From positions 1 to 64,000 of IMG/VR virus record IMGVR_UViG_3300036820_000002: a DNA stretch of 64,000 bases; one strand, given 5' to 3'. Shown here in pieces: positions 32,737 to 46,848 of the stretch (position 1 is the stretch's first letter; each line of letters starts with the position of its first letter). Below the pieces are notes generated by a model. It made no database searches and was not told the origin of the DNA. It saw nothing but the letters and a program-made list of their open reading frames with translations. A program made the position numbers and the translations under genes. This DNA comes from a virus.

Positions 32737-32809
32737 TCGGACGTAGCTCAACGGGGAGAGCTCTGGTCTCCAAAACCAGCGGTTGAGGGTTCGAGTCCCT
32801 CCGTCCGGG
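32737..32809 (+). tRNA. tRNA-Trp (CCA)
   Basis: Acceptor TCGGACG pairs with CGTCCGG, D-stem GCTC/GAGC, anticodon loop CTCCAAA between CTGGT and ACCAG. First gene of the tRNA island; CCA not encoded. Confidence 0.93.
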
Positions 32810-32914
32810 CGAGGCACCACCTGCGGGTGTACGTGCGTGATCATTGACAACTCCATCTGTTGACGGGCCGGATGACCAGGGGTGAACGATGCCGCTGTAC
32901 CGTCCGGTCTCGTG

Positions 32915-32987
32915 GGGGCCTTGGCGCAGCTGGCAGCGCGTCTCTTTTGCACGGAGAAGGTCGCGGGTTCGATCCCCGCAGGCTCCA
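32915..32987 (+). tRNA. tRNA-Ala (TGC)
   Basis: GGGGCCT/AGGCTCC acceptor, GCGC/GCGC D-stem, loop TTTGCAC, discriminator A. First of three tandem alanine tRNAs. Confidence 0.95.
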
Positions 32988-32992
32988 CGTCA

Positions 32993-33066
32993 GGGGGTTT
33001 GGCGCAGTCCGGAAGCGCGCTTCCTTCGCAAGGAAGAGGGCACGGGTCCGAATCCCGTAACCTCCA
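32993..33066 (+). tRNA. tRNA-Ala (CGC)
   Basis: GGGGGTT/AACCTCC acceptor, anticodon arm CTTCC-TTCGCAA-GGAAG. Confidence 0.95.
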
Positions 33067-33073
33067 CCTGTAC

Positions 33074-33147
33074 GGGGCTTTAGCGCAGCCTGGTAGCGCG
33101 TCTGCGTGGCACGCAGAAGGTCGCGGGTCCGAATCCCGCAAGCTCCA
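33074..33147 (+). tRNA. tRNA-Ala (GGC)
   Basis: GGGGCTT/AAGCTCC acceptor, anticodon arm TCTGC-GTGGCAC-GCAGA. After it 145 bases without a recognised feature. Confidence 0.95.
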
Positions 33148-33292
33148 CGAAAGAAGGGCCTGGCGCTGTCGGGCGTCAGGACTAAACGACATCCGGCGGG
33201 GCCCCAGTGATTACAACGGGCCGGGCGGCAGTCAGGGTACTACTCATGAGGTCCGCGCTCCCGCTTACTGGTGGTACTGCTAGGAATAGCAT

Positions 33293-33366
33293 CGGGTTGT
33301 GGCGCAGCTTGGCAGCGCGCGTCGTTCGGGACGACGAGGTCGGCCGTTCAAATCGGCCCAGCCCGA
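33293..33366 (+). tRNA. tRNA-Pro (CGG)
   Basis: CGGGTTG/CAGCCCG acceptor, loop TTCGGGA between CGTCG and CGACG. First of three proline tRNAs. Confidence 0.93.
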
Positions 33367-44148: not shown

Positions 44149-44171
44149 CGGAGAAAAGAGAGGAAGTCATC

Positions 44172-44369
44172 ATGCTGCTCAAGAGCCAGCAGCGGGTATA
44201 CCTGCTCGCCGCACCCTCTAATGCGGGTCATGTGTCCCGTATCCGGGGTGACCAGTTCACTGTCACCTATGACAGTCCCGGACGGCCCAAGGGCCATCCC
44301 CGGGTCCGGGTGACCTACCAGGAGCGCCAGGTGTCCCAGTTCGGCACCGGCAATCTCGGCCAGCCCTGA
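44172..44369 (+). CDS. Small beta-rich protein
   Basis: 65 residues, GAGAGGAAG before the ATG. QQRVYLLAAPSNAGHVSRIR then GDQFTVTYDS, like a small SH3/KOW-type barrel. Stop TGA overlaps the following tRNA-Arg by 7 bases. Unknown. Confidence 0.6.
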   Translation: MLLKSQQRVYLLAAPSNAGHVSRIRGDQFTVTYDSPGRPKGHPRVRVTYQERQVSQFGTGNLGQP

Positions 44370-44434
44370 TAGCTCAGAGGACAGAGCGGGGCTCTCCTAA
44401 GGCCTGCGCGGGGGTTCGAGTCCCTCTCAGGGCA
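44363..44434 (+). tRNA. tRNA-Arg (CCT)
   Basis: GCCCTGA/TCAGGGC acceptor, loop CTCCTAA in GGGCT/GGCCT. Confidence 0.9.
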
Positions 44435-44465
44435 CGTTACGCTAGGACCGGAAGAGGTGAGGGAT

Positions 44466-46628
44466 ATGGATACGGAGCAGGTCGTTTTCGCCCGGACGCA
44501 CCGGGTATCGCTGGATACCGCCCGTGACGGCCACGATGCCGTCACGGAGGCCCGTCAGCTGGACGCGGTGCTGATGAGCACCGGGTTCAAGCTGTCCGCT
44601 GACCTGCTCCGGGCCCTGAGCGTGCTGGATCCCCCGTATGTCATCGACCGGGCCGTGGAGATCATCGGCTGGGCCCGGGAGCTGTCCGGGGATCACGTCC
44701 GGCACAACGCCTATTTCATCGACTTCCCGGCGAACGTGCCGGATACGCTGGAGTTCTGGGCGGATTGCCTGCGTGAGGCGGTCCTCGCCGGCGGCCAGGT
44801 CCGCCACTTCGCGGTGCTGAACACCGACGGCCTGCAGTTCTTCACCGACCTGCTGTCGCTGCCCGGCTACGGCCGCTATCGTCATGCCTATGAAGAGATG
44901 CTGGCCCGTCACGATGAGTTGATCCCGCTGATGACCGACCGGATGACCATCATCCACCTCGGCGTATCAGCGGCGCAGGAGGCGGCTGCGCTCTACGCGG
45001 AGCTGGCCGGGTCGGCCGTGCCGCTGTCCGGGGAGGGGCTGGCCGGGCTGCGGGTGCTGGCGCAGGCGTGCCTGGGTGAGATGCCGGAGATCCCGGTCCG
45101 GGAGAACCGGGCCGTCGTGAACGCCGTCCGGGTCAGGGCCGGGATCATGCCGTCGGTGACCACGGTCACCGACATCCTGCGGCTGGCCGCTGAGCTGTCC
45201 GGATCCGGCGTGACCCTGGCGGAGCCGCCCCGGTTCCGGTCGCTGCCCCGCCCGCAGCGTCACCTGCTGATGCAGTCCCTGGACGCCCTCACGCCGGTTA
45301 ACGACGTGGTGCGGCACCGGGAGCAGTGGAAGAGGCTCGGCGAGCGGCTGCATCCCCATGAGTACCCGCAGTACCCGGTGGCCCAGCTGGCGTTCGCGGC
45401 AGCGCGCGGCGAACAGGAGGTCACCACCCTCGCCGGGAAGGCGGAGCAGGCATTCCGGCGCGGTGACACCGTCAGCGCGGCGAAGTGGCTGTCTGTTGCT
45501 CCCGGGATGCTGTGGCGGTCGGCGGACCGGCTGCTGCGCACCGCTGATCCCGGTGACCTGACTGCCCTGATGAAGGGGTTCAGCGGAGCTGCCCCGGACG
45601 TGTCCGCCCGGGTGCTGCTGTCGGCGGGGGAGCACCTGGTGAACCGGGTCCGCAAGAGCGAGGTCAGCCGCATTTTCACCGGCAGGGGTGCCCGCGCCTG
45701 GGTGATGCCGGACACCCGCCCGCTGCTGGACCTGTCCGTGGTCGCTGACCTGTCGGCACTGATCGATGAGGAGATCGGCCGCCGGCTCCCGGCAGTGCCG
45801 GTGCTGGTCATCGACCCGGCGATCCTGGACGCGGCCGTGCCGCTGTCCGGGAAGGGGATCCCGGACGGGCTGGGCGTGTGGCCGCGCGGGTCGGTGATCC
45901 CGCTGCCGCCGGGAGATACGCTGCGCTTCTTCTGTTACTGGAAGCAGACGCGGCGGCAGACTGACTTCGACCTGTCCGCGGTGTTCACCGATGAGCAGTT
46001 CGCCAACGGCGAGCATGTCAGCTGGACCCGTCTCCACGGGAAGAATGCCGTCCACAGCGGTGACATCGTCAATGCCCGCGACGGTGCGACCGAGTTTATC
46101 GACATCGCCCTGGCCGGGTTCGGGCGTGGCTACATCATCCCGCAGGTCTACGTCTACGCCGGGGAGGGGTTCGATGAGGTGGAGGAGAACGTCTTCGGCT
46201 TCATGACCCGCCAGTCCGGCCAGGAAGGTGCCCCTTTCGAGGCGCGGACGGTGCGGATGAGGTCGGCGCTCCACGGAAGCGGGCGGGTGGCGATGCCGCT
46301 GGTCTTCTTCCGGGGCGAGGATGGCCGTTTCTATGCGAAGTGGCTGCACCTGAACCTGAAGGGGCAGCAGGGCTTCTCCGGCGGCGCCCAGGTCGAGGAT
46401 AACCGGCTGACCACGCGGCTGCTGGCCCGGTCGGTAATGGAACGGGATTATCTCCGGGTCGGCTACCTGGCCGGGCTGATGGCAGCGAAGGCGGGGATGG
46501 TGCTGCAGGCAGGCGGTGACCTGCCGGGCCAGCCGGTGACCTACCTTGGTGTCGCGGAGCCGGAAGGGCTGCCGGAGGGGTCGGCGGTCATCACCCTGCC
46601 GGGCCTGGCCCGGCTGATCCCGGTGTAG
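44466..46628 (+). CDS. Large TerD-domain protein (MXAN_6230/SCO0854-like)
   Basis: 720 residues. The N-terminal two thirds are helical (DLLRALSVLDPPYVIDRAVE, HNAYFIDFPANVPDTLEFW, EQWKRLGERLHPHEYPQYP) and resemble the actinobacterial SCO0854-type family. The C-terminal third, FDLSAVFTDEQFANGE, HSGDIVNARDGATEFIDIAL and YVYAGEGFDEVE, is a TerD/CABP-like calcium-binding stress domain. It looks host-derived and may help tolerate stress or exclude rivals. Largest gene of the tRNA island. Confidence 0.65.
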   Translation: MDTEQVVFARTHRVSLDTARDGHDAVTEARQLDAVLMSTGFKLSADLLRALSVLDPPYVIDRAVEIIGWARELSGDHVRHNAYFIDFPANVPDTLEFWADCLREAVLAGGQVRHFAVLNTDGLQFFTDLLSLPGYGRYRHAYEEMLARHDELIPLMTDRMTIIHLGVSAAQEAAALYAELAGSAVPLSGEGLAGLRVLAQACLGEMPEIPVRENRAVVNAVRVRAGIMPSVTTVTDILRLAAELSGSGVTLAEPPRFRSLPRPQRHLLMQSLDALTPVNDVVRHREQWKRLGERLHPHEYPQYPVAQLAFAAARGEQEVTTLAGKAEQAFRRGDTVSAAKWLSVAPGMLWRSADRLLRTADPGDLTALMKGFSGAAPDVSARVLLSAGEHLVNRVRKSEVSRIFTGRGARAWVMPDTRPLLDLSVVADLSALIDEEIGRRLPAVPVLVIDPAILDAAVPLSGKGIPDGLGVWPRGSVIPLPPGDTLRFFCYWKQTRRQTDFDLSAVFTDEQFANGEHVSWTRLHGKNAVHSGDIVNARDGATEFIDIALAGFGRGYIIPQVYVYAGEGFDEVEENVFGFMTRQSGQEGAPFEARTVRMRSALHGSGRVAMPLVFFRGEDGRFYAKWLHLNLKGQQGFSGGAQVEDNRLTTRLLARSVMERDYLRVGYLAGLMAAKAGMVLQAGGDLPGQPVTYLGVAEPEGLPEGSAVITLPGLARLIPV

Positions 46629-46630
46629 GA

Positions 46631-46709
46631 TGAGTGCGTGAGGCCATGGGCGGGCTTCCTTCTATTCTCTTATACGGAAACTAGCGCGCCCGCTTTCCTC
46701 ACGCACTCA
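46631..46709 (+). ncRNA. Structured element E1 (long hairpin)
   Basis: A perfect 13-bp outer stem (46631-46643 with 46697-46709) encloses GCGGGC/GCCCGC, then TTCCTTCT and a later CTA. It shares this architecture with E2 and E3 downstream. It follows the TerD gene stop, so it may also end that transcript. Confidence 0.55.
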
Positions 46710-46711
46710 CC

Positions 46712-46848
46712 TCCCGGCGGTCATAGGCGGGGTTCCTTCTGTCCCTCATAATCTGGGTGCCGCAGGTTCGACCCCTGCCTCCCCTCCGGGGAGTAGCTCA
46801 GCGGCAGAGCACCAGACGGCTCCTACCCCGCCTGCTTCCCGCACGGGA
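46712..46848 (+). ncRNA. Structured element E2 containing a permuted tRNA
   Basis: Outer stem TCCCGGCGG (46712) with CCGCACGGGA (46839, one bulge), second stem GGCGGGG (46726) with CCCCGCC (46826), then TTCCTTCT on one side and CTA on the other. A tRNA fold is inserted between them through its anticodon stem. Confidence 0.6.
46745..46816 (+). tRNA. Circularly permuted tRNA, anticodon CAT
   Basis: The 3' half comes first: CTCATAA (loop), TCTGG, GTGCC, T-arm GCAGG-TTCGACC-CCTGC, then CTCCCC-T. Immediately after comes the 5' half: GGGGAG, TA, D-arm GCTC/GAGC and CCAGA. CCAGA pairs perfectly with TCTGG and GGGGAG with CTCCCC, so a complete tRNA forms if the anticodon loop is closed and the acceptor loop opened. 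C787 opposite T785 would mimic the C1-U72 mismatch of the initiator tRNA. Confidence 0.65.

What the first reader, a model, noticed from the sequence alone, without database searches (positions are those of the whole stretch)
32737..46816. Self-sufficient translation kit: tRNAs for all 20 amino acids, CCA enzyme, GGQ hydrolase
I count 42 conventional tRNAs covering every amino acid including initiator Met, plus a CCA-adding enzyme (28636), a release-factor-like rescue hydrolase (39253) and a GroES. This suggests the phage expects host tRNA loss, for example by tRNA-cutting defence nucleases, or codon limitation.
Basis: partly seen in the sequence, partly recalled or inferred. Interest (0 to 1): 0.72.

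Follow-up and report, generated by a model that had tools for sequence, protein, structure and literature searches.

The report
Phage tRNA island with Ro60-like ribonucleoprotein
A tRNA-rich bacterial virus carries 42 tRNA genes with a tRNA-finishing enzyme, and the same gene block ends in a Ro60-like protein gene with three small Y-RNA-like RNAs, one shaped like a rearranged tRNA, which looks like an undescribed RNA-protein partnership also found in many bacteria.

Summary
ARAGORN finds 42 tRNAs (32737-44435), all on the + strand, covering all 20 amino acids. The CCA enzyme, the GGQ release-factor-like protein and GroES are confirmed. The record is 130 kb with no other tRNA. Thirty-nine of 42 tRNAs lack an encoded CCA, and the set reads 58 of 61 sense codons (99.4% of codon use), so codon limitation is a poor explanation.

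Large phage tRNA sets are known (C1 mycobacteriophages, XacN1), so the island alone is a new member of a known kind. The new part is its 3' end. The protein is predicted to have a Ro60-like helical ring and a TerD domain. Homologues in other tRNA-rich phages and in bacteria are flanked by the same covarying RNA family (GG-CYA-stem-TCCTTCTA...NTTT-CC): beside 40 of 40 Streptomyces homologues tested, and 8 whole genomes have 9 copies, all beside the gene.

I read this as a Ro60/Y-RNA-like particle guarding translation RNA. Binding and function are untested.

The parts
28636..30057 (+). CCA-adding enzyme (tRNA nucleotidyltransferase: PolyA_pol head + HD domain)
   Evidence: Pfam PF01743 7e-17, PF01966 5e-7; phrog_2244 8e-61
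32737..44435 (+). Array of 42 tRNA genes: Trp; Ala x3 (UGC,CGC,GGC); Pro x3; Phe; Gly x3; Lys x2; Leu x3 (CAA,GAG,CAG); Gln x2; Thr x3; Ser x3 (GCU,GGA,CGA); Ile x3 (GAU x2,UAU); Arg x4 (UCU,ACG,CCG,CCU); Glu x2; Met x2; Asn; Asp; Val x2 (GAC,UAC); His; Tyr; Cys. CCA encoded in only 3 (37393, 41904, 42596)
   Evidence: ARAGORN; Rfam; 3' ends
39091..39660 (+). GGQ (GGPGGQ) release-factor-like protein, 189 aa from the first start codon; probable ribosome-rescue hydrolase
   Evidence: PF00472 2e-15, phrog_3122 8.5e-32; aligns to the GGQ domain of RF1 and RF-H
44457..46628 (+). 723-aa protein: Ro60-like helical domain (about residues 165-464) + TerD beta-sandwich (about 480-660); NF041916 (MXAN_6230/SCO0854)-related
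46632..46712 (+). Y-like hairpin RNA 1 (core 46638-46702)
   Evidence: R1 63.4 bits, E 8e-14 (the sequence is in the model's training set); fold
46713..46848 (+). Y-like hairpin RNA 2: same two-stem core, but the loop is a circularly permuted tRNA-like module (T arm, capped acceptor-like stem, D arm; 46754-46818)
   Evidence: Rfam YrlA 40.7 bits, E 4e-6, model positions 23-89 of 114; fold -64.5 kcal/mol; sequence
46855..46955 (+). Y-like hairpin RNA 3 (core 46862-46945)
   Evidence: R1 43.9 bits, E 2e-8 (the sequence is in the model's training set)
47207..47518 (+). GroES (Cpn10), adjacent, not shown to belong to the unit
   Evidence: PF00166 8e-28

Best explanation
The island is a translation-maintenance block. 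Its 42 tRNAs, matured by the phage CCA enzyme, can keep nearly all sense codons readable when host tRNAs are cut or lost, and the GGQ protein can free stalled ribosomes. The block ends in a Ro60/Y-RNA-like ribonucleoprotein: the 723-aa protein forms a Ro60-like helical ring that binds the conserved two-stem core (3x4 internal loop CYA/NTTT, then TCCTTCTA) of three small RNAs encoded just downstream. The tRNA-shaped loop of the second RNA would tether or decoy a tRNA-handling enzyme (nuclease, exonuclease, ligase or CCA enzyme). Shown: genes, RNA family, covariation, linkage, predicted fold. Inferred: transcription, protein-RNA binding, role against tRNA damage.
For: tRNAs and enzymes are real. 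Homologues of the 723-aa protein lie in tRNA-carrying or large phages Weasels2, RcXuper, RpAliso and XacN1, with CCA or nucleotidyltransferase genes (RcXuper, RpAliso, XacN1) or RtcB (Weasels2) nearby. RNA family: 90.8% of cells paired, covariation 0.807 against 0.187 shuffled and at most 0.18 slid; pattern hits 49 in 80 kb of flank against 1 in 312 kb elsewhere on the same strand; 94 R1 hits, all on the gene's strand; 40 of 40 Streptomyces loci; in 8 whole Streptomyces genomes only 9 hits, all at the gene. Fold: helical domain against Thermus phage phiLo Ro60 Z 10.1, 250 of 300 residues, next row Z 6.9 over 114; full model against three Ro60 structures over 303-334 residues. The Variovorax homologue lies near rtcR, the RNA-repair activator, whose operon in Salmonella holds Ro60 and YrlA (PMC7790460).
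Against: No expression or binding data. No TROVE match by profile, and Foldseek alone found no significant match for the helical domain. Z 10 for a helical repeat is suggestive, not proof. The RNA training set was chosen for pairing, so its covariation is partly built in; the whole-genome and Streptomyces results are the cleaner test. Several phage homologues show few, weak or no RNA hits. Host unknown; no defence nuclease identified.
Confidence: 0.6

Rival explanations
1. Ordinary tRNA-rich phage: the tRNAs replace host tRNAs degraded late in infection or cut by defence nucleases, and the 3' protein-RNA unit is an unrelated neighbour.
For: C1 mycobacteriophages average 33 tRNAs and their anticodon loops are altered at VapC sites (PMC10264068); phage tRNAs are reported to evade retron-type defences (PMC11555353, abstract). 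Protein and RNAs also occur in Streptomyces chromosomes, where a link to tRNA arrays was not looked for.
Against: The homologue recurs beside tRNA genes and CCA enzymes in unrelated phages; tRNA-like loops were found in phage loci only (7 of 32 by filter against 0 of 89 bacterial).
Confidence: 0.25
2. Codon compensation: the tRNAs supplement codons rare in the host.
For: tRNAs for codons that are rare in the phage are present (AUA, AGA, CGA).
Against: The set is near complete and not biased to rare codons; the three unread codons include the rarest (UUA, 1 of 16,072 codons).
Confidence: 0.07
3. The hairpins are cis elements of the neighbouring mRNA (processing, termination or autoregulation) and not free Y-like RNAs.
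For: In Streptomyces they start about 22 nt after the stop codon.
Against: They occur up- or downstream of the gene in different lineages, in one to six copies, with a tRNA-like domain grafted into some.
Confidence: 0.15

Closest known systems
Ro60/Rsr-Y RNA ribonucleoproteins (Deinococcus Rsr, Salmonella rsr-yrlBA-rtcBA; Thermus phage phiLo Ro60, PDB 9l5y)
   Same: Ring-like helical domain by predicted fold; small hairpin RNAs encoded next to the protein; one RNA with a tRNA-like module; link to RNA repair genes in some genomes
   Different: No TROVE profile match; TerD beta-sandwich instead of a vWA domain; RNA stem motif not matched by Rfam's YrlA model, which covers only the tRNA-like part
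YrlA Y RNA (Rfam RF02553)
   Same: Circularly permuted tRNA-like module
   Different: Score below gathering; the outer stems belong to a different RNA family that mostly lacks the tRNA module
MXAN_6230/SCO0854 family (NCBIfam NF041916)
   Same: Homologous over most of the length (341 bits)
   Different: Below the 600-bit cut-off; the family name rests on a RING domain not identified here; no RNA partner found in the papers I could search
tRNA-rich phages (C1 mycobacteriophages; Xanthomonas phage XacN1)
   Same: Large tRNA arrays with RNA-processing genes
   Different: Different phage lineage; near-complete decoding set in a 130-kb record

Membership tests
tRNA genes (42) | Cloverleaf above the Rfam RF00005 gathering score | tested here: met
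   All 42 between 38.3 and 67.6 bits against 29
CCA-adding enzyme | PolyA_pol head + HD domain, phage tRNA nucleotidyltransferase family | tested here: met
CCA-adding enzyme | Adds CCA to tRNA | not testable with these tools
   Needs an enzyme assay
Release-factor-like ribosome rescue (ArfB / PrfH type) | GGQ catalytic domain | tested here: met
   PF00472 2.3e-15; GGPGGQ
Release-factor-like ribosome rescue (ArfB / PrfH type) | mRNA-channel tail or decoding-centre region that defines the subtype | not tested
   Only the GGQ domain was matched
Ro60 / TROVE family | TROVE profile match (PF05731) | tested here: not met
   None at E<=1 in the window protein, nor at E<=10 in the record and six homologues
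Ro60 / TROVE family | Ro60 helical-repeat ring fold | tested here: met
   Predicted model only: Z 10.1, 250 of 300 residues, rmsd 4.2 to 9l5y
Ro60 / TROVE family | C-terminal vWA domain | tested here: not met
   The C-terminal domain matches TerD (Z 13-16)
Ro60 / TROVE family | Binds Y RNA | not testable with these tools
   Only genomic linkage shown
YrlA (RF02553) | Score at or above gathering (69 bits) | tested here: not met
   40.7 bits, model positions 23-89 of 114
YrlA (RF02553) | Permuted tRNA-like module | tested here: met
NF041916 MXAN_6230/SCO0854 | Curated cut-off of 600 bits | tested here: not met
   341 bits
TerD domain | TerD beta-sandwich fold | tested here: met
   2qng TM 0.72 by target length, 3ibz Z 16.2

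The most novel reading that the evidence does not exclude
A previously undescribed class of bacterial and phage ribonucleoprotein: a Ro60-like ring fused to a TerD domain, with its own family of small hairpin RNAs (GG-CYA-stem-TCCTTCTA-loop-stem-NTTT-CC) encoded next door in Actinomycetota, Bacillota, Pseudomonadota, Deinococcota and phages, in which phages have grafted tRNA-mimicking modules onto the RNA loop.
Probability: 0.55. Interest if true: 0.85.

Novelty: new variant of a known kind. Interest (0 to 1): 0.72.

Why it matters
Proteins of this family are annotated only as hypothetical, TerD or RING proteins. Finding a conserved RNA partner beside them, in many Streptomyces and in tRNA-rich phages, gives them a testable job as RNA-binding hubs, extends the Ro60/Y-RNA idea to a protein group without a TROVE signature, and ties phage tRNA islands to a likely RNA-surveillance particle with a tRNA mimic. 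That makes the old question of why phages carry tRNAs easier to test.

Tried and rejected
TROVE search of the record: none. hhalign of the protein profile against Streptomyces TROVE ORFs: no match, but the reference set was small and partly misframed, so uninformative. PDB sequence-profile search with A1: nothing significant. Foldseek with the isolated helical domain: no E below 0.001; the Ro60 match came from VIA-align only. Single-protein patterns in viral contigs: none; broad alignments too divergent for the pattern search. A 43rd tRNA at 46816 rejected: it is the tRNA-like module of an RNA hairpin. Codon compensation judged weak. Literature: no paper for SCO0854 or MXAN_6230, none tying RtcR, ncRNA and RING finger; the Burroughs and Aravind 2016 review is not held, so prior description there cannot be excluded.

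Full report
Observation. ARAGORN finds 42 tRNA genes at 32737-44435, all on the + strand, and none in the rest of the 130,268-bp virus record. Rfam's tRNA model scores all 42 above its gathering score. Every amino acid is represented, with two Met-CAT genes. By wobble rules the set reads 58 of 61 sense codons; UUA, CUA and UCA are unread and make up 0.61% of 16,072 codons in 58 called genes of the window. Only three tRNAs encode CCA, so the CCA enzyme at 28636 is a natural companion. The GGQ protein (39091-39660) and GroES (47207-47518) are confirmed.

What the end coordinate hides. The sequence reads T arm, capped acceptor-like stem, D arm, that is, a circularly permuted tRNA-like module, and an outer stem AGGCGGGG/CCCCGCCT encloses it. 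Two more hairpins flank it. All three follow the 723-aa gene 44457-46628.

The protein. Pfam is silent; PHROG 33734 matches; NCBIfam NF041916 (MXAN_6230/SCO0854) matches the window protein and all eight phage homologues tested, the window protein at 341 bits against a cut-off of 600. Homologues lie in an uncultured 485-kb phage, Rhodococcus phage Weasels2, Rhodobacter phage RcXuper, Ruegeria phage RpAliso, Xanthomonas phage XacN1 and others, and 33 viral loci were fetched. RcXuper and RpAliso have tRNAs and a nucleotidyltransferase beside it; Weasels2 has tRNAs and RtcB nearby. A 63%-identical relative, L014, keeps much the same tRNA order ahead of the gene. Plasmid homologues occur in Streptomyces (about 49% identity), Variovorax, Niallia, Deinococcus and Vibrio. 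A genome scan by two peptide patterns found 335 relatives, of which the 80 returned are Streptomyces. The Variovorax gene sits near rtcR.

The RNA family. The hairpins share GG-CYA-stem-TCCTTCTA-loop-stem-NTTT-CC. In 38 sequences 90.8% of cells pair, and the covariation score is 0.807 against 0.187 for shuffles and at most 0.18 for slid registers. Because I chose the sequences by pairing, this is partly circular. Three controls are cleaner. A fixed pattern hits 49 times in 80 kb of gene flank, once in 312 kb elsewhere on the same strand, never inside the genes and 4 times in 480 kb on the opposite strand. Model R1 gives 94 hits at E up to 1 over 46 sources, all on the gene's strand and nearly all within about 1 kb of it. 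In 40 Streptomyces chromosomal loci not used for the model, all 40 have a copy, mostly about 22 nt after the end of the match to the gene; in 8 whole Streptomyces genomes of 7.7-10.5 Mb there are only 9 hits, placed at the gene by their coordinates. Rfam at E up to 10 shows no + strand match for hairpins 1 and 3. Copies with a tRNA-like loop were found by a strict filter in 7 of 32 phage loci and 0 of 89 bacterial loci; the window copy and L025 escape the filter but are visible by eye.

Fold. AlphaFold2 with 28 sequences gives mean pLDDT 82.8. The C-terminal domain is TerD. Among Foldseek's candidates VIA-align ranks three Ro60 structures, from phage phiLo, Deinococcus (Rsr) and entry 1yvp (Ro autoantigen), at Z 8.1, 6.8 and 6.0 over 303-334 residues, where most other rows cover about 100 residues or the TerD domain. 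The helical domain alone (residues 165-464, pLDDT 90.1) matches phiLo Ro60 at Z 10.1 over 250 of 300 residues, and the next row is Z 6.9 over 114. Foldseek alone found nothing significant for this domain, and TROVE profiles do not match. I therefore say Ro60-like, not Ro60.

Mechanism. Sequence comparison cannot show binding. The most economical reading is a Ro60/Y-RNA-like particle within a translation-maintenance block: tRNAs plus CCA enzyme replace host tRNAs, the GGQ protein frees stalled ribosomes, and the particle handles damaged or structured RNA, with RNA 2 as tRNA mimic. In Salmonella the RtcR-regulated operon holds Ro60, Y RNAs and RtcBA and responds to cut tRNAs, and its authors suggest that the YrlA tRNA-like domain might inhibit the nuclease (PMC7790460). 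Jumbo phages are reported to carry CCA enzymes, peptidyl-tRNA hydrolases and in a few cases ROT/TROVE proteins as RNA-repair kit (PMC7824862). tRNA-rich mycobacteriophages are proposed to counter anticodon nucleases (PMC10264068).

Novelty. The tRNA island is a new member of a known kind. The protein-RNA unit is, as far as the library I could search shows, undescribed, and I rate it a new variant of the Ro60/Y-RNA kind. The library is incomplete, so an earlier description may exist.

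Noticed in passing
window 12062-13621 (+): TnpB/IS605 OrfB-type gene (Cas12f1-like TNB domain 1.5e-17; PHROG transposase 3e-49) in the phage.
   Followed up: no
window 35466-35978, 37678-38253, 41300-41881 (+): Three small proteins between the tRNA genes start with signal-peptide-like sequences; two have weak ricin-B lectin matches (E 3e-4 and 2e-3). Odd company for tRNAs.
   Followed up: no
window 34471-34547 (+): tRNA-Leu(CAA) is predicted without the long variable arm typical of tRNA-Leu; possibly degenerate or miscalled.
   Followed up: no
L009:3259-3561 and L012:2895-3116: Permuted tmRNA genes (Rfam RF04321, 108 and 129.5 bits) lie just upstream of the YrlA-like RNAs in phages RcXuper and RpAliso; MT835874 (L013:808-1108) has a tmRNA near its copy.
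   Followed up: partly
L058:1852-3504: rtcR (RNA-repair activator) lies a few small genes away from the homologue in a Variovorax plasmid.
   Followed up: partly
L060:7762-11143: VWA-like and MoxR ATPase genes follow the Deinococcus homologue.
   Followed up: no
window, all called genes: The TTA leucine codon is used once in 16,072 codons, by far the rarest sense codon.
   Followed up: no
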